DNA from: Chamaea fasciata
Taxonomy: Eukaryota > Chordata > Aves > Passeriformes > Sylviidae
Length of the DNA: 64,000 bases
Reading direction: 5' to 3'
Assembly (NCBI GenBank): GCA_029207755.1
Contig: JARCOQ010000004.1
Span: forward strand, 43,060,305-43,124,304
In this document: piece after piece, positions 8,101-63,567 of the stretch
How the letters are laid out: each line of letters opens with the position of its first letter
Numbering within the stretch: position 1 is the first letter of the stretch
Notes under the pieces: model-generated
The model's input: the letters and a program-made list of their open reading frames with translations, nothing else
What the model was told of the DNA's origin: nothing
Database searches by the model: none
Position numbers and translations under genes: made by a program

Positions 8101-8860
8101 TTTCAGAGTCACAGAACCATGGAACGATTTGGGTTGGAAAGGACTATTTATGGTTCAAATCCCCCTGCCATAGGCAGGGACATCTTTCACTAGATCAGCT
8201 TGCTCAAAACCCTGTCCAATCTGGCCCTCCACTCTTGCAGTGCGGGGGCATCCACATCTTCTTCGGACAACCTGTCCCAGTGCCTCACTATCCCCACAGT
8301 AAAGAATTTCTTCTTAATATCTAATCTAAATCTACCTCCTTCAGCTTAAAGCCATTCCCCCTTCTTCTGTTGCTACATGCCCTTGTAAAAAGTCCCTCTC
8401 CAGCCTTCTTGTAGACCCCCATTTAGGTCCTGGAAGGTGCCATGAGTTCTGCCAGGAGCCTTGTCTTCTCCAGGCTGAACATCCCAACTCTCTCATCCTA
8501 TTTTTGTAAGACAGGTGGTCCAGCTCCCTTATCACCCTCATGGCCTCCTCTGGATTCATTTCAGGAGGTCTGTGTCCTACCTGTACTGGCACCCCAGAGC
8601 TGGACACAGCCCTGCAGGTGGGGTCTCACTAGGGCAGAGCAGAGGGGCAGCATTCCCCCCTTCCCCTGCTGCCCATGCTGTTTTGGATGCAGCCCAGGAC
8701 ACGTTTGGCTTTCTGGGCTGTGACACATTGCTTTCTGCAATTGCTGGCCTTTCTGCTCATTGCTGAGACTTATTGAACTTCTCATTGACCAACACCCCCA
8801 AGTCCATCACATTTTTAATTTCATTTCCATTAACTGTCTTCCTACCAATACCTGTTACAC
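8101..8860 (-). repeat. CR1 LINE, 3' part, inverted
   Basis: Read on the plus strand, this is the reverse complement of an avian CR1 3' end. It runs 'tcagagtcacagaaccatgg', 'ggttggaaaggact', 'cccctgccataggcagggac', 'cagtgcctcactatccccac', 'aagaatttcttcttaatatc', 'tacatgcccttgtaaaaag', 'tctccaggctgaac' and 'agctggacacagccctgcag'. The element's sense strand is therefore minus, with its 3' terminus at about 8101. It keeps roughly 750 bp of 3' end and fades after about 8800 into AT-rich DNA. Open frames across it on both strands are shadows of the repeat. Divergence looks moderate. Confidence 0.93.
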
Positions 8861-21336: not shown

Positions 21337-21341
21337 GCTGT
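21337..21341 (+). repeat. Target-site duplication (left copy)
   Basis: GCTGT, repeated exactly at 22042-22046 on the other side of the solo LTR. Confidence 0.9.
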
Positions 21342-22041
21342 TGTCTTGGGTTTTAAAATGTTACTCTATTCCATCTATTGAAACCTGGTAGAGCAGTGTT
21401 GCTTATCTCTGCCCAAATGGGTCAGTGTTGCTTATCAGATGGTGCAGTGTTGCTTATCTCTGTTCATTGTTCCACTACCCCCATGGGGATATCTTCTGTT
21501 ACTGGACCATTAAAGCTCACGAATGACATGACACATTACATCGTACCATTGTAAGATACTCTACCCAGGGAGGAAGAGCCAAACCATCTTCACCTAGATA
21601 AAAGGAGCCACAAGTGTCACCAGGTATCCAGTTTTCCACTAGATTCCTGGAGGAAGGCTGGACCCATCTTTCCATTACTGGACCCTTTTTTCTATGGGAC
21701 CATCTCTACTCCAACAGAACCACATCTGCCACTTCAGGAGAGCTTACTCTGGACTGCTTCCAACACCCTGACCAACAGGGTGTCAGGTTGTGTTTCTGAC
21801 TCTGTCAGGGTTCTCTAGGATTTCTTGTTTGTTTGTTTGTTTGCTTGCTTATTCTTCTGTACTACAACATTTGTATTTTTAAATCCCTAGTAAAGAACTG
21901 CTATACCTATTCCCAAAATCTTTGCCTGACAGCATTTGAATTGCAAATTTATCATAATCTGGAAAAGGGGGGGGAGGGGCTTACATTCGAAGGGAGACTC
22001 CAATCTTCCCTGGCAGATACCTGTCTAGATAAACCAAGACA
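21342..22041 (+). mobile_element. Solo LTR, same family as the provirus
   Basis: A 700-bp LTR starts TGTC and ends AAGACA, closely matching the LTRs at 57072 and 62869 along its whole length. It carries CTTATC (GATA-type) sites at 21402, 21431 and 21453, each in a repeat of 'cagtgttgcttatc'. A TATA-like 'tagataaaagg' lies near 21594, and AGTAAA near 21888 is the probable poly(A) signal. A G-rich stretch precedes the 3' end. The exact 5-bp duplication GCTGT on both sides shows insertion followed by LTR-LTR recombination that removed the interior. More diverged from the proviral LTRs than they are from each other. Confidence 0.95.
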
Positions 22042-22046
22042 GCTGT
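22042..22046 (+). repeat. Target-site duplication (right copy)
   Basis: GCTGT, matching 21337-21341. Confidence 0.9.
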
Positions 22047-22470
22047 TCTGCATTATCATGTCATGCAGAATGAACCCAACCAGTAGTCTTTAGGATTTTC
22101 TCTTGAGTGAAAAAAAATGAAAATAATCTAACAACCATAATCTGTTATGGTTGTTATCTTCCTTTTCCACATTCAAACTTGTAGTAGTTCCACAAGCTCC
22201 CTAGACATGTTCTTGGTTCTGATGCACTTAAAAGGAAAGAAAAGACTTTTCTTTTTGCTTCTGATAACTTGCTCTTCAAAACCTTTTCTAGCTTTCCTTT
22301 TTTTGGCTTCAGATTTGTCTTTTCAGGACTAATAATATTTTCTATTTTTTTAATATATATATTGCTTCTATAGTCTTTTTATTAAGGATATCTTTTTAAC
22401 TGCTTCTCTTATAACTACAGCTTTTAATTGTGAAAAAAATTATTTGAAATATAATATAAAAAGTTATCTC

Positions 22471-22630
22471 GTGAGGCACTGGAACAGGTTACCCAGGGAA
22501 GCTGTTGATGTCCCATCCCTAAAAGTGTGCAAGACCAAGTTGGATGAGGCTCTGAGCAACCTGGGCTGCCCATGGCTGGAGTTTGGAACTTGACAAACCT
22601 TACCAACCCAAAACATTCTACGATACTTTG
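22471..22630 (+). repeat. CR1 LINE 3' tail fragment
   Basis: Sense-orientation CR1 end: 'gtgaggcactggaacaggtt', 'acccagggaagctgttgatg', 'gatgaggctctgagcaacct', 'gcccatggctggagtttgga' and 'ccaacccaaaacattctacg'. It ends where the terminal ATTCTATGA-type repeat is expected. An internal gap is present relative to the consensus as I remember it. About 160 bp remain. Confidence 0.9.
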
Positions 22631-57066: not shown

Positions 57067-57071
57067 TCAAT
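57067..57071 (+). repeat. Proviral target-site duplication (left)
   Basis: TCAAT immediately before the 5' LTR, repeated exactly at 63563-63567 after the 3' LTR. It fixes both ends of the provirus. Confidence 0.95.
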
Positions 57072-57128
57072 TGTCATAGGTTTTGTAAAGAGCATATTAT
57101 TCTATTCCATCTGGGTGGGGCAGAATTG

Positions 57129-57185
57129 CTTATCTTTGCTCAAATGGGTCAGTGTCACTTATCAGATAATAGAGTGCTACTTATC
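57129..57185 (+). promoter_or_regulatory. GATA-site cluster in U3
   Basis: CTTATC (reverse complement of GATAAG) occurs at 57129-57134, 57158-57163 and 57180-57185, with AGATAA at 57164-57169. The same three sites recur in the solo LTR at 21342 and in the 3' LTR. GATA-family factors bind this core, so a GATA-driven enhancer is plausible. Confidence 0.5.
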
Positions 57186-57324
57186 TCTCTTCATTGTTTC
57201 ACTACTTCCATGGGAATGTCTTCTGCTAATGGACCATTAAGAGCTCATCAATGACATTACACATTACAGTGCACTATTGTAAACTGCTCCACACAGGGAA
57301 GAAGAGCCAAACCATCTTAACCTA

Positions 57325-57334
57325 GATAAAAAGG
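57325..57334 (+). promoter_or_regulatory. LTR TATA-like box
   Basis: GATAAAAAGG in the middle of the LTR. It is the best TATA candidate and would place the RNA start near 57355. Confidence 0.5.
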
Positions 57335-57615
57335 AGCCACAGTCCCACTAGGCATCCAGTTTTTCCACCAGATCCCTGGAGGAAAACCGGACCCATCTCA
57401 CCATTACTGGACTCTTTTTCTTCAACGAGACCATCTCTACTCCAACAGAACCACATCTGCCACTCCAAGAGGGCTTACGTTGGACTGCTTCCAACACCCT
57501 GACCAACAGAGTGTCAAGTTGTATTTCTGACTCTGTCAAGGTTTTCTAAGATTTCTTGTTTGTTTATTTGTCTGCTTATTCTTCTGTACTACAACATCTG
57601 TATTTTTATATCCCT

Positions 57616-57621
57616 AGTAAA
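57616..57621 (+). terminator. LTR poly(A) signal (AGTAAA)
   Basis: AGTAAA, a known variant of AATAAA. It is the only candidate hexamer in the expected part of the LTR and is conserved in all copies of the family in this window. Confidence 0.5.
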
Positions 57622-57773
57622 GAACTGCTATACCTATTCCCAAAATCTTTGCCTGACAGCCTTTTAATTGCAAATTTATGATAATTTGGAAAAGGAGGGG
57701 GAGGGGCTTACATTTTAAGAGAGACTCCAACCCTCCCTGGCAGATACCTGTCTGTCTAAACCAAGACTAATTT

Positions 57774-57791
57774 TGGCGCCCAACGTGAGGC
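57774..57791 (+). other. Primer binding site, tRNA-Lys
   Basis: TGGCGCCCAACGTGAGGC matches 17 of 18 bases of the complement of the 3' end of tRNA-Lys(1,2), as used by some betaretroviruses and visna virus. The mismatch is A at 57788 in place of G. Five bases separate it from the LTR end. Confidence 0.85.
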
Positions 57792-57951
57792 TAGAGGGCA
57801 TTGAGAGGAAAAAGGAATAGCAGTTCTTTGGTGACCTAAGTTCTTGTGTATAGAAGCCTTGTGGGACAACTTCATGTGGTCCAGTTTTCCCTAGTTTGGG
57901 TGGCACGTGGTTGTGGCTGTATTTCTGCCATTTGCAAGCCCTTATCTAAAT

Positions 57952-59651
57952 ATGGGCCCCATAACTAAAACTACTGTGACTGTCATCCAGTTTATTTTAT
58001 AGCTTAATAAGGTGAAGAACTCATGAATTTTTAATTTCCTCTGGAAAGCAGGCACATGGATTCAGGGCTATCGTACACTAACTGTGTGTTTTTGGAGTTA
58101 CTTTAACAATTGTCCCTACTGTGAAGAAATAACACCGGGAGAGTTTTTTTCCCAACCCTTTACCCACCTCTTTGGGTCTGCCCCACCAGTTTTTGAAGGG
58201 TTTAAATCCTCCCTGAATGCTAATGATATCATACAATGGCTGGTGCTGCTAATAGGCGTATTCTATTTAGCAGTCAGAGATAAGGGAAGATTGACCTGGA
58301 TAACCACCCTGATACCTACCCCACAGAACAGGGATGATACCCCAGAGCCTGACTCTGCCCCACAGCCTGCCTCAGAAAGGACACACCCGGATTGGGTTGA
58401 GGTTCTGGTAAAAGAGATGGGCCAGATGCTGAGGAAGTACATTTCCCCAGCTCATGAAAAACCCTCCCCCTGCCCGAGAAGGCTGAGACTGATGGTGCAG
58501 CAGTGGAACCCACAGATGTTACAACTGTCCAGGTTCCAGCTGAACCACAAGAGCAGCCACAGTCAGCAGCAGTCACCCCTGTGGAAACAAAGAAGTCTAA
58601 AGTGAAATCGTTAGATCCTAGTATTAAAGATAAGAAAGGAGCGCCCTCACAATCCACAAAAGAGCCACAGGTTGAGATCATCACTGAGTTCCTGACGTAT
58701 GAAAGTCTACGTAATCTGCAAAAAGCTATTGTACGACGAGGACGTGAGGCTTATACAGCCTGGATACTTCGAGTCTGGGACCTTATGAGTACAGGCGTAC
58801 AACTGGATAGTGCTGAAGCAAGGAATTTGGGACCCTTGATCCAGGACTCAGGTATAAATCAGGTATTTGTAAAAGAGCAAAGGCCCCTTTCCCTTTAGGA
58901 ACGACTTCTAATGAGTGTGAGAGAGAGATTTGTCCACAAAGACAGAATGCGAGAGCACAACAATAGAATGCGATGGAAGACCCTTGAGGAAAGAATCCAA
59001 CAGTGGAGAGAAGTGGCAGTATTGGAAGTACTTTTTGGGAGGACCGGGCAGCATGATAATGACCCCGACAAGGTTAGATGCACAGGGTGCATGTTGTGGA
59101 ATCTGGCAACTCATGGACCATCTCAATACGCCACATTCATCACAACAATTAATGCCGAGGATAACCGAGAGACAGTGGGTTCTGTTGCCAACAAGCTCAG
59201 AAATTATGAAAGTATGATCAGTGGCCCAATGCAGGCTCATGTCTCTGCGGTGGTGAAAGAACTCAAAGAGGAGATGAGGGAAATGAGAGAGGAGATGAGA
59301 AGGAACAGTTCCCATGTAGCACCAGTGCGAGTCACAGGCCCCAGAATCAGAGCCCAACATCCCCCAGCGAGAGAGAGAGGGTACACCCCTCGAGCTGACC
59401 TGTGGTTTTATCTGCGGGACCATGGGGAGGACATGGGAGTGTGGCATAGGAAACCCACTTCTGTCCTGACAGCACAGGTACATGAGCTCAAGAAGAGAAA
59501 CACTAACAGAGAGAGTTCCACTAGAATGAAGGTAGCCTCAGCCTCCCATGAGCAAGCTGCCAGGTATTACAGAGGTGGGAATGCTGTGTCGGATTCCCTC
59601 GAAAGAACCTCTACCATGTATGTCCAAGAAGGGAATAATAACCAGTGCTAG
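57952..59651 (+). pseudogene. gag: gag remnant of the provirus
   Basis: The gag precursor would form the viral core. The probable start is ATG GGC at 57952 (Met-Gly), 160 bases after the primer site. That frame meets TAG at 58000 and TGA at 58024, then stays open to about 58460. Its product includes a strongly hydrophobic segment of about 17 residues (IIQWLVLLIGVFYLAV) followed by a Pro/Glu-rich stretch. A frameshift near 58455-58490 moves the reading to the frame that continues to 59651, broken by TAG at 58896. The second half holds a capsid-like helical region and a charged, coiled-coil-like stretch near 59255-59310 (Lys/Glu/Met/Arg-rich). I see no CCHC box. The frame ends with TAG at 59649. 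Assignment to gag rests on position and general composition, not on a clear domain. Confidence 0.8.
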
Positions 59652-59959
59652 AGGGACTCTGCCTCTAGCCAGGAAGAGGCACGGGAAAATCGAGTTTTTT
59701 AGACTGTGTAGATTCGATGGCCTGGCACATCAGAGCCACAAAAATATGAAGCTTTAGTAGATACTGGGGCGCAGTGTACTCTAATGCCATCGGGACATGT
59801 GGGGGCAGAACCGATTTCCATTGCCGGGGTGACGGGGGGATCACAGGAATTGACTCTGGTTGAAGCCGAGGTGAGCCTGACTGGGAAGGAGTAGCAGAAA
59901 CTTCCGATTGTGACCGGCCCAGAGGCTCCGTGTATTCTGGGCATATACTTCCTCAAGAA
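59652..59959 (+). pseudogene. pro: Retroviral aspartic protease remnant
   Basis: The protease would cleave the polyprotein. It reads in the same frame as the 3' half of gag, after TAG 59649, so gag and pro are separated only by a stop. The catalytic Asp-Thr-Gly is at 59760-59768, followed by Ala-Gln, the usual flap glycines, and the second conserved Ile-Leu-Gly near 59934-59942. Stops interrupt it at 59700, 59709 (both before the catalytic motif) and 59892 (TAG in each case). The frame then runs straight into reverse transcriptase. Confidence 0.88.
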
Positions 59960-61250
59960 TGGCTATTATAAAGACCCTAAAAGACTCAGATGGGCTTTTG
60001 GAATAGCTGCCGTGGAGACAGAGAACATTAAGCAGTTGAACACCTTGCTGGGACTGTCAGAGAACCCATCTGCAGTAAGACTCCTGAAGGTAGAAGAACA
60101 ACAAGTACCTGTTGCCACCTTGACAGTGCACCGTCGGCAGTATCGGACAAATCGAAATGCTGTGATCCCCATCCACAAGATGATCCATGAGCTAGAGAGC
60201 CAAAGAGTGGTCAGCAAAACCCACTCACCCTTCAACAGCCCCATCTGGCCTGTGCGCAAGTCTGATGGAGAATGGAGACTGACTGTGGACTATCGTGCAT
60301 TGAATGAAGTGACTCCAATGCTGAGCGCTGCTGTGCTGGACAGTACGAGCTAGAGTCCAAAGCAGCAAAGTAATATGCCACTATTGACATTGCCAATGCA
60401 TTTTTCTCCATTTCTCTGGCTGCAGAATGCAGGCCTCAGTTTGCTTTCACCTGGAGGGGCGTGCAGTACACCTGGAACCGACTGCCCCAGAGGTGGAAAC
60501 ACAGCCCCACCATCTGCCATGGGCTGATCCAGGCTGCACTGGAGAAGGGTGAGGCTCCAGAACATCTACAGTACATCGATGACATCATTGTGTGAGGGAA
60601 GACTGCAGCTGAAGTGTTTGATAAAAGAAAAAAAATCATCTAGATTCTGCTGAAAGCCGGTTTTGCCATCAAGAAAAGCAAAGTCAAGGGACCTGCTCAA
60701 GAGATCCAGTTTCTGGGAGTATGGTGGCAGGATGGACGGTGGCAGATTCCCACTAAGGTCATCAACAAAATTACAACGTCTCCACCGACCAAGAAAAAAG
60801 AAACACAAGCTTTCCTAGGTGCCATAGGTTTTTGGAGGATGCACATTCCAGAATCCAGCCATATTGTGAGCCCTCTCTACCTGGTTACCCACAAGAAGAG
60901 CGATTTCCACTGAGACCCTGAACAACAACAAACTTTTGTTCAGATCAAGCAAGAGATTTCTCATGCAGTAGCCCTTGGCCCAGTCAGGACGGGACCAGAA
61001 GTGAAGAATGCGCTTTACTCTGCAGCCGGGAACAACAGTTTGTCCTGGAGCCTTTGGCAGAAGGTGCCTGACAAGACCCAAGGCCAACCACTAAGATTCT
61101 AGAGCAGAAGTTACAGAGAGTCCGAAGCCAACTACACTCCCACAAAAAAAGAAATCTTGGCTGCTGATGAAAAAGTTCAAGCTGCCTCAGAAGTAATTGG
61201 CACAGAAGCACAACTCCTCCTGGCACCCCGACTACCAGTGCTGAGGTGAA
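59960..61250 (+). pseudogene. pol: Reverse transcriptase domain remnant
   Basis: RT would copy the RNA genome to DNA. The N-terminal part is open in frame with pro to 60353, including the 'SPIWPVRK' and 'VDYRALN' type motifs of retroviral RT. A deletion near 60335-60355 shifts the frame. The next frame holds the fingers/palm segment, an L-P-Q motif at 60482-60490 followed by Arg (AGG, 60491) where Gly is normal, and the active-site Tyr-Ile-Asp-Asp at 60572-60583. In-frame stops lie at 60371 TAA, 60593 TGA, 60641 TAG, 60911 TGA, 61100 TAG and 61247 TGA. The YIDD itself is intact, but no active enzyme can be made. Confidence 0.93.
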
Positions 61251-61935
61251 TGTTTAAAGGAAAAGTTCCCTCTACCCACCATGCCACTGACGCCACATTG
61301 AGCAAATAGATTGCCCTTATCACACAGCGCGCCCGCATTGGAAACCCAAATCGCCCTGAGATTTTAGAAGTAATTACCAACTGGCCAGAAAGTGAAAGCT
61401 TTAGTCTCACAGTAAAAGAGCAAGAACAAGTGACAAGAGCTGAAGAAGCTCCTCCATACAACCGACAGCAAAAGAAACACGCTACGCTCTTTTCACTGAC
61501 AATTCCTGTCGCATCATAGAGATGAACCACAAGTAAAAAGCAACCATATAGAACCCCACACGACAAGTCGCACAAGTCACTGAAAGAGAAAGGAGATCAA
61601 GTCAACTTGCTGAACTCAAAGCTGTTCAATTGGCCTTAGACATCACTGAAAAAGAAAAGTGGCCAAAGCTCTACCTCTACACTGATTCGTGGATGGTAGC
61701 CAATGCTCTGTGAGGCTGGCTGGAAAGGTGAAAAAAGGCCAACTGGCAGCGTAAGAGAAAACCAGTCTGGGCTGCTGATGAATGAAAGAACATTGCCACT
61801 TGAGTAAAGAAGCTGCCTGTGAAAGTCCACCATGTAGATGCCCATGTCCCCAAAAGTCAGGCTAATGAAAAGCACCAAAACAATGAGCAAGTAGATCAGA
61901 CTGCAAAGATAGAGGTGTCAAAGATAGATTTAGAT
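61251..61935 (+). pseudogene. pol: RNase H domain remnant with connection
   Basis: RNase H would degrade genomic RNA during reverse transcription. TAG at 61307 precedes a third frameshift near 61470, where the reading moves to another frame. There the catalytic carboxylates are visible: Asp at 61498-61500 (in Thr-Asp-Asn), Glu at 61612-61614 and Asp at 61684-61686 (in Thr-Asp-Ser). Stops in this frame are 61534 TAA, 61549 TAG, 61711 TGA, 61729 TGA, 61783 TGA and 61801 TGA. This is the densest group of stops in the provirus. Confidence 0.88.
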
Positions 61936-62733
61936 TAGCAGCACAAAAGAGAGTTGTTCCTAGCTCGATAGGCCCATGATGCCTCAGGTCATCAGGGCAG
62001 AGATGCCACCTTTAAGTAGGCACAAGACCAAAAGGTAGATTTAACCATGGATAGTGTTTCTCAAGTCATCCATGACTGTGAGACGTGTGCTGCAATCAAG
62101 AAAGCCAAGCAGGTGAAACCCTTATAGTATGGTGAGCAGCAGTCCAAATACAAATATAAGGAAGCCTGGCAGATTGACTGTATCACCCTTCCCCAAACCC
62201 GCCAGGGCAAGCGCTATGTGCTAACCATGGTGGAAGCCACCACTGGATGGTTGGAGACCTACCCTGTGCCTCACGCTACTGCCCGGAACACCATCCTGAG
62301 CCTAGAAAAACAAGTCCTGTGGAGACATGACACCCCTGAGAGAATCGAGTCAGACAATGAGACCCATTTCAAAAACAGCCTTATCGACACCTGGGCTAGA
62401 GGGCATGGCATTGAATGAATATGTCACATTCCTTATCATGCACCAGCGGCTGCCAAAAAGGTTAAACGGTACAATAGACTACTAAAGACTGCCCTGAAAG
62501 CACTTGGTGGAAGAACCTTCAAAAATTGAAAAATGAACTTAACAAAGGCCACATGGATAGTCAACACTCGAAGATCTGTCAGTCGAGCTAGTCCTGCCCA
62601 GTCTGAACCCTTCCACACAGTGGATGGAGATAAAGTCCCTGTAGTACACATGAAAAGTATTTTAGAAAAGACTGTTTGGATTAACCCTACCTCAGGCAAA
62701 AGTGAACCCATTCGTGGGATTGTTTTTGCTTAA
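61936..62733 (+). pseudogene. pol: Integrase domain remnant
   Basis: Integrase would insert the DNA copy. The zinc-binding HHCC is present: His at 61975 and 61990, Cys at 62077 and 62086. The first two catalytic Asp residues are at 62176-62178 and 62353-62355. At the place of the catalytic Glu, just before Arg-Tyr-Asn, the codon is AAA (Lys) at 62464-62466, with 36 codons between it and the second Asp instead of the usual 35. Stops are 61936, 61969, 62017 and 62125 (all TAG), 62416 TGA and 62527 TGA. The probable natural end is TAA at 62731. No separate env frame follows. Confidence 0.93.
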
Positions 62734-62868
62734 AGACCTGGTTACACTTGGTGAGTAATGCAAAATAATGAAGAAACCAGTTGTGTACCACAAAGAAACC
62801 TAATCCTAAGTGGGAATTGAGTGTAAAGGTTCATTGTGTTAAGTATGATGCAGATGGTAATAAAATAA
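62734..62868 (+). other. Spacer between integrase and 3' LTR
   Basis: 135 bases with no env-like frame. The bases just before the LTR ('gatggtaataaaataa') are purine-biased but are not a clean polypurine tract. Confidence 0.7.
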
Positions 62869-63562
62869 TGTCATAGGTTTTGTAAAGAGCATATTATTCT
62901 GTTCCATCTGGGTGGAGCAGAATTGCTTATCTTTGCTCAAATAGGTCATTGTCACTTATCAGATAATAGAGTGCTACTTATCTCTCTTCATTGTTTCACT
63001 ACTTCCATGGGAATGTCTTCTGCTAATGGACCATTAAGAGCTCATCAATGACATTACACATTACAGTGCACTATTGTAAACTGCTCCACACAGGGAAGAA
63101 GAGCCAAACCATCTTAACCTAGATAAAAAGGAGCCACAGTCCCACTAGGTATCCAGTTTTTCCACCGGATCCCTGGAGAAAAACCGGACCCATCTCACCA
63201 TTACTGGACTCTTTTTCTTCAACGAGACCATCTCTACTCCAACAGAACCACATCTGCCACTCCAGGAGGGCTTACTTTGGACTGCTTCCAACACCCTGAC
63301 CAACAGGGTGTCAAGTTGTATTTCTGACTCTGTCAAGGTTTTCTAAGATTTCTTGTTTATTTGTCTGCTTATTCTTCTGTACTACAACATCTGTATTTTT
63401 ATATCCCTAGTAAAGAACTGCTATACCTATTCCCAAAATCTTTGCCTGACAGCCTTTTAATTGCAAATTTATGATAATTTTGAAAAGGGGGGGGGAGGGG
63501 CTTACATTTTAAGAGAGACTCCAACCCTCCCTGGCAGATACCTGTCTATCTAAACCAAGACA
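62869..63562 (+). repeat. Provirus 3' LTR
   Basis: 694 bp, TGTC...AAGACA. It is the partner of the LTR at 57072, about 2 percent different by hand count. Confidence 0.95.
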
Positions 63563-63567
63563 TCAAT
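63563..63567 (+). repeat. Proviral target-site duplication (right)
   Basis: TCAAT, matching 57067-57071. Confidence 0.95.

What the first reader, a model, noticed from the sequence alone, without database searches (positions are those of the whole stretch)
57952..62733. Provirus bears the signature of G-to-A DNA editing
Seen: about 26 in-frame stops (14 TAG, 10 TGA, 2 TAA) in gag-pro-pol, while many CAA, CAG and CGA codons stay intact. The contexts of most stops in RT, RNase H and integrase fit former TGG (Trp) codons, meaning G-to-A on the plus strand. Other conserved sites with G-to-A-compatible changes are the PBS (A at 57788), RT L-P-Q-Gly now Arg (AGG 60491), and the integrase Glu position now Lys (AAA 62464). 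Known: cytidine deaminases acting on minus-strand retroviral DNA give exactly this pattern; birds lack APOBEC3 but have AID and APOBEC1-like genes, and editing of songbird LTR elements has been reported. Inference: this copy was edited during reverse transcription. Assigning stops to former TGG uses my memory of related elements.
Basis: partly seen in the sequence, partly recalled or inferred. Interest (0 to 1): 0.8.

Follow-up and report, generated by a model that had tools for sequence, protein, structure and literature searches.

The report
Bird provirus riddled by G-to-A editing
A retrovirus-like element in what appears to be a bird genome carries the one-directional G-to-A damage left when a host enzyme edits viral DNA while it is being copied, a defence already reported for songbird elements, here with a clear target preference and more damage toward the 3' end.

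Summary
Element 57072-63562 is a full-length ERVL-like provirus (LTRs 97.4% identical). Against 357 relatives (named ones avian), 21 of 24 pro-pol stops fall where relatives have Trp, 3 at Gln or Arg. At 796 conserved codons G>A is seen at 75 of 434 informative G, C>T at 5 of 330, A>G 10 of 414, T>C 1 of 273. Editing prefers GG, 43 of 127, over GA 18 of 120, GC 10 of 119, GT 4 of 68, and rises 3'-ward (rank test P 7.5e-4). LTR divergence predicts about 2 stops by decay, not 26. So a cytidine deaminase edited the minus-strand cDNA, probably in the round that made this copy. The context is unlike AID's, less like APOBEC1's, and like APOBEC3G's. Songbird ERVL editing is already in print: a new member of a known kind. 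Open: the enzyme, one round or several, and DNA-level comparison with sister copies (the genome search did not complete).

The parts
57067..57071 (.). 5' target-site duplication TCAAT
   Evidence: sequence; same five bases at 63563-63567
57072..57767 (+). 5' LTR
   Evidence: direct repeat of 62869-63561, 97.4% by blastn; starts TG
57774..57791 (+). primer binding site, tRNA-Lys-like (assignment recalled)
   Evidence: sequence
57952..59651 (+). gag region: 4 in-frame stops and a presumed frame change near 58458; editing not settled
   Evidence: few close relatives
59652..60340 (+). protease and N-terminal RT; low editing
   Evidence: weak protease hits, below Pfam cut-off; 59650-60399: 9 of 94 informative G edited
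60341..61469 (+). RT and connection; frame change at its 5' edge; editing heavier from about 60900
   Evidence: RVT_1 E 1.6e-11 on piece 60374-60592
61471..62815 (+). RNase H and integrase; heavy editing, with a lighter patch at 62150-62399
   Evidence: RNase_H E 1.3e-4 (below cut-off) and rve E 2.1e-12 on pieces
62869..63562 (+). 3' LTR, ends CA
63563..63567 (.). 3' target-site duplication TCAAT

Best explanation
A host cytidine deaminase that prefers CC (TCC highest here) edited the single-stranded minus-strand cDNA of this ERVL-like element during reverse transcription. Plus-strand synthesis fixed the edits as G-to-A, and the already dead copy integrated. Shown: a G-specific, strand-specific excess; GG context; more editing 3'-ward; far too many stops for the LTR divergence. 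Inferred: that it happened on cDNA, in one round, by an AID/APOBEC-family enzyme.
For: 21 of 24 pro-pol stops at Trp sites. G>A 75 of 434 against C>T 5 of 330, A>G 10 of 414, T>C 1 of 273; the same at agreement thresholds 0.6 to 0.95 (G>A 17-19%, C>T 1.3-2.0%). Pairwise, G>A exceeds each other transition class in 253 of 256 relatives with at least 200 aligned codons; medians G>A 25.5, C>T 4, A>G 8, T>C 3. GG against other contexts P 2e-8; without Trp codons P 9e-8. 8 of 75 G>A lie in CpG. Edited G lie further 3' than kept G (rank test P 7.5e-4; position z 3.8 in a logistic model). The LTR clock predicts 2.0 stops. At non-stop edited sites relatives carry the derived residue in 98 of 3751 comparisons.
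Against: No sister copy at DNA level; only replacement changes are seen; no unedited bird provirus was run through the same pipeline as a control. Relatives are predicted proteins, which omit stop-laden copies. A lighter patch at 62150-62399 (3 of 34) breaks the rise. A>G is also raised late: 9 of 248 after 60900, 1 of 166 before. Gag is not clear: the two least diverged of the 12 listed gag relatives give G>A:C>T 6:6 and 5:1; over all 12, G>A exceeds C>T in 11, but most are about 60% different and A>G is 4-11 in ten of the 12 (one search counts: 0 and 3 in the other two). GG is depleted in 60900-62150 (0.65 of expected) but not in the edited 62400-62730 (1.08). LTR-LTR A/G differences polarise 6 G>A to 5 A>G.
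Confidence: 0.93

Rival explanations
1. The editing is real but was built up over several rounds: RNA of an already edited provirus was copied in trans by proteins of intact relatives.
For: Not excluded by strand bias or context. The lighter patch at 62150-62399 could be a template switch to a less edited genome.
Against: No relative shares more than 17% of the edited residues it covers (146 relatives covering at least 8 sites); but those relatives are not known to come from the same genome, and predicted proteins omit stop-laden copies.
Confidence: 0.15
2. Ordinary neutral decay after insertion, with methyl-CpG deamination.
For: Genomic ERVs decay; three stops at Gln/Arg sites and the frame changes fit this background.
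Against: Decay is strand-symmetric, but G>A is 17% and C>T 1.5%; 8 of 75 G>A are in CpG; LTR divergence predicts 2.0 stops.
Confidence: 0.02
3. An A-rich subfamily or codon bias inherited by the lineage, not editing.
For: Retroviral plus strands are often A-rich (recalled).
Against: A functional lineage cannot have 21 Trp codons as stops; relatives rarely carry the derived residues (98 of 3751).
Confidence: 0.02
4. Targeted mutation of the integrated DNA in the germ line by AID-type activity.
For: Birds have AID (recalled).
Against: It would hit both strands and prefer WRC (plus-strand G followed by C or T, recalled); here GC and GT are the least edited, 10 of 119 and 4 of 68.
Confidence: 0.02

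Closest known systems
Edited zebra finch LTR elements (Knisbacher and Levanon 2016; not held, seen only as cited in passages of PMC12548423 and PMC6497032 and in the Discussion of PMC6523648)
   Same: Avian ERVL-type provirus with plus-strand G>A excess; Table 3 of PMC12548423 lists TguERVl1_I-int with 392 G>A among 475 mismatches, 71.5 per kb (passage).
   Different: Here about 45 per kb in pro-pol, extrapolated from replacement sites. Host species unknown to me; whether that paper gives the same context could not be read.
HIV-1 hypermutated by human APOBEC3G
   Same: TGG as preferred target, giving stops; a proposed rise of editing with distance from the polypurine tracts, which that paper says is not always evident (passages of PMC3310730).
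   Different: Birds are said to lack the APOBEC3 locus (PMC6854741 passage). GGA is the highest trinucleotide here (23 of 51).
Hypermutated endogenous MMTV (Mtv21, Mtv61)
   Same: All 36 unique stops there are former Trp codons; Mtv61 is much less edited in its 5' half (passages of PMC12548423).
   Different: Mouse and APOBEC3; its authors say that the Mtv61 gradient does not resemble the HIV-1 one.
G>A-edited L1 of the green anole (PMC3880073)
   Same: Editing in a genome without APOBEC3; the paper proposes APOBEC1.
   Different: L1 elements were edited, LTR elements of that genome not (passage).

Membership tests
APOBEC-type hypermutated provirus | plus-strand G>A far above C>T | tested here: met
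   75 of 434 against 5 of 330
APOBEC-type hypermutated provirus | dinucleotide context of a known deaminase (GG or GA) | tested here: met
   GG 43 of 127, GA 18 of 120, GC 10 of 119, GT 4 of 68
APOBEC-type hypermutated provirus | stops mainly at Trp codons | tested here: met
   21 of 24
APOBEC-type hypermutated provirus | editing rises 5' to 3' toward the polypurine tract (not always seen even in HIV-1) | tested here: met
   rank test P 7.5e-4; one lighter patch; no polypurine tract recognised
APOBEC-type hypermutated provirus | G>A against intact copies of the same genome at DNA level | not testable with these tools
   The genome search 'own' unanswered nine times
AID editing | WRC context (plus-strand GYW), recalled | tested here: not met
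   GC and GT least edited
Mammalian-type APOBEC1 editing | TpC context (plus-strand GA best) | tested here: inconclusive
   GA 18 of 120 is below GG 43 of 127, but mouse APOBEC1 on nuclear DNA also favoured CpC (PMC6854741 passage)
ERVL (class III) avian element | foamy-virus-related pol | tested here: met
   by sequence only: best solved relatives of the integrase piece are 3dlr, 2x78, 2x6n and PFV integrase entries (that the first three are also PFV is recalled)
ERVL (class III) avian element | 5-bp target duplication (recalled for ERVL) | tested here: met
   TCAAT on both sides
ERVL (class III) avian element | named repeat family by DNA library match | not testable with these tools
   no repeat library or bird genome on hand

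The most novel reading that the evidence does not exclude
A bird deaminase that is not APOBEC3, yet has APOBEC3G-like CC/TCC preference, edits ERVL cDNA in a single round, and part of the difference between the two LTRs is itself editing (11 A/G against 1 C/T; 9 against 1 in the alignment), so that LTR dating overstates the age of such copies.
Probability: 0.3. Interest if true: 0.55.

Novelty: new member of a known kind. Interest (0 to 1): 0.4.

Why it matters
Birds are said to lack APOBEC3, the main retroviral editor of mammals (PMC6854741 passage), yet oscine LTR elements are reported as among the most edited of vertebrates (PMC6497032 passage, PMC6523648 Discussion). A single copy with a measured context (GG, GGA highest) and a 3'-ward rise narrows which enzyme could have done it: AID fits poorly, APOBEC1 only in part. 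It is also a warning for LTR-based dating, because LTR differences of an edited copy may not all be age.

Tried and rejected
Relatives in viral contigs with two pol pieces: none confirmed. tblastn against plasmids: none. The window's own genome: the same genome search was unanswered nine times. tRNA scan of the window: none. Knisbacher and Levanon 2016 not held. Passages of PMC7922186 and PMC9099904 gave nothing on birds' enzymes or context. Polarising LTR differences with the solo LTR gave no clear direction (6 G>A, 5 A>G, 1 T>C, 2 transversions). The longest run of unedited G (32, in 60656-60902) is not beyond chance (permutation 0.12). Gag: close relatives too few for a verdict. Other pol-related fragments in the window (near 8.4, 21.5 and 22.4 kb) were not used as a control, being short and divergent.

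Rows dropped: 2 of 26 stops lie out of the main frame beside the frame change and were dropped; the 4 gag stops were not compared with relatives. HSPs under 50% identity were dropped (not in the gag counts), as were sites with fewer than 10 relatives. Only the best 120 hits of each protein search are listed and used: 357 distinct proteins, out of 429, 866 and 644 reported. The cut at 60900 was chosen after seeing the bins, so its P of 1.2e-5 is post hoc; the rank test is not.
Full report
What it is. Positions 57072-63562 hold a complete provirus: two LTRs (57072-57767 and 62869-63562, 97.4% identical by blastn; 14 substitutions in 692 aligned positions), starting TG and ending CA, flanked by the 5-bp duplication TCAAT, with a primer binding site at 57774-57791. 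Of ten pieces between stops given to Pfam, three bear the main domains: RVT_1 (E 1.6e-11), rve (2.1e-12) and, below its cut-off, RNase_H (1.3e-4); a long relative, P0241, has all three in this order. By sequence the integrase piece is nearest, among solved structures, to foamy virus integrase. With the 5-bp duplication this fits an ERVL-type (class III) element. All named relatives listed in three protein searches are birds (Hirundo, Grus, Turdus, Zosterops, Corvus, Taeniopygia and others), so the host is inferred to be a bird; that it is a passerine is a guess from the closest named hits. The species was not identified.

The observation. In the main reading frame there are 27 stops in 57952-62733: 14 TAG, 10 TGA, 3 TAA. 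The frame changes at about 60330 and 61470 are set by relatives, the one near 58458 by open-frame continuity only. It is not the end: 39 relatives align across it and pol homology runs to about 62815.

Where the stops come from. 21 fall where relatives have Trp (each at least 92%), 3 where they have mostly Gln or Arg. Two further stops listed lie out of the main frame and were dropped. The four gag stops could not be judged. Of 47 conserved Trp sites 21 are stops, 24 kept and 2 other; of 39 conserved Gln sites 2 are stops, 36 kept and 1 other.

Hypermut-style test, protein-guided. At 796 codons where at least 80% of relatives agree, each base whose transition would change the residue was counted as an opportunity. 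G>A 75 of 434 (17.3%), C>T 5 of 330 (1.5%), A>G 10 of 414 (2.4%), T>C 1 of 273 (0.4%); G>A against C>T P 1.6e-14. Thresholds from 0.6 to 0.95 give the same picture. With stops left out, 52 of 86 strict differences are G>A-only, 10 A>G-only and 3 C>T-only. Pairwise, G>A leads in 253 of 256 relatives. C>T at 1.5% is near the 1.0% per copy implied by the LTRs, so the background looks like ordinary decay and the excess is specific to G on the plus strand. No unedited bird provirus was available to run as a control; C>T serves as the internal one.

Context. Next base G: 43 of 127 edited; A: 18 of 120; C: 10 of 119; T: 4 of 68. GG against the rest P 2e-8; without Trp codons GG is still 29 of 89, P 9e-8. 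GGA is highest, 23 of 51. In a logistic model next-base G (odds ratio 9.4), A at +2 (2.5) and position (1.9 per kb) are positive, next-base A weakly so (1.9, z 1.7), and T at -1 negative (0.26). On the edited minus strand this reads CC, with TCC highest. AID's WRC (recalled) fits poorly. The TpC reported for mammalian APOBEC1 fits less well than CC, but mouse APOBEC1 on nuclear DNA favoured both TpC and CpC (PMC6854741, abstract and passages). That paper calls birds devoid of APOBEC1, while PMC3880073 (passage) speaks of a zebra finch homologue; so an avian APOBEC1 stays possible. The TGG preference given for APOBEC3G (PMC3310730 passage) fits well. 8 of 75 events lie in CpG.

Position. Edited G lie further 3' than kept G (rank test P 7.5e-4). 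Cut at 60900, a point chosen after seeing the bins, 12 of 163 are edited before and 63 of 271 after (P 1.2e-5), while C>T is 3 of 133 and 2 of 197. In 60900-62150, 25 of 46 informative GG are edited. More editing 5' of the 3' polypurine tract is what longest exposure of single-stranded minus DNA predicts, a hypothesis described in PMC3310730, which adds that gradients are not always evident. Against a smooth gradient: 62150-62399 has only 3 of 34. A>G also rises late, 1 of 166 before and 9 of 248 after, unexplained. No clear polypurine tract was recognised next to the 3' LTR by eye.

Timing. The LTRs imply about 1% divergence per copy, hence about 2.0 stops by decay in gag-pro-pol; 26 or more has P 3.5e-20. 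So the damage was there at, or very near, integration (inference). At non-stop edited sites relatives carry the derived residue in 98 of 3751 comparisons, and no relative shares a set; this favours one event, but the relatives are not known to be from the same genome.

Gag. Relatives are few. Of the 12 best-covering ones listed, G>A exceeds C>T in 11, but most are about 60% different and A>G is comparable; the two least diverged give G>A:C>T 6:6 and 5:1. Gag is left open.

LTRs. Their differences are lopsided: 11 A/G, 1 C/T, 2 G/T (P 0.006 for A/G against C/T), or 9, 1 and 3 in the alignment (P about 0.02, my arithmetic); 7 of the 11 are followed by G. Against the related solo LTR at 21342-22041, both proviral LTRs have A for solo G at 22 sites and the reverse at 7, while C/T is even (16 and 17). 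Direction within the LTR pair is not resolved (6 G>A, 5 A>G). If part of this is editing, the LTR divergence overstates the age.

Known or new. Songbird LTR elements edited by APOBEC-type enzymes are in print: Knisbacher and Levanon 2016, which I could not read and know from the Discussion and passages of PMC6523648 and passages of PMC6497032 and PMC12548423, whose Table 3 lists a zebra finch ERVL at 71.5 G>A per kb. Here about 141 edits, or 45 per kb, are extrapolated for pro-pol. This is a new member of a known kind. Ten literature searches (some lists capped) showed no paper that I could identify from its listing or the passages seen as giving the enzyme or target context in birds; the key paper was not held, so this is no claim that it is unpublished.

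Noticed in passing
21337-22046: Solo LTR of the same family, about 85% identical to the provirus LTRs, with its own 5-bp duplication GCTGT on both sides.
   Followed up: partly
57072-57767 and 62869-63562: The two LTRs differ by 9 to 11 A/G but only 1 C/T substitutions, with A about equally often in each LTR; editing of one LTR alone does not explain both directions.
   Followed up: partly
60900-62815: A>G replacement changes are also concentrated late in pol, 9 of 10 after 60900; unexplained.
   Followed up: no
62150-62399: Lightly edited patch (3 of 34 informative G) between heavily edited stretches, possibly a template switch.
   Followed up: partly
62816-62868: No recognisable polypurine tract next to the 3' LTR; a long purine run lies inside the LTRs near 57688-57706 (by eye).
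   Followed up: no
8351-8653 minus strand, 22420-22563 plus strand: Short, divergent fragments matching avian proteins of the relatives set.
   Followed up: no
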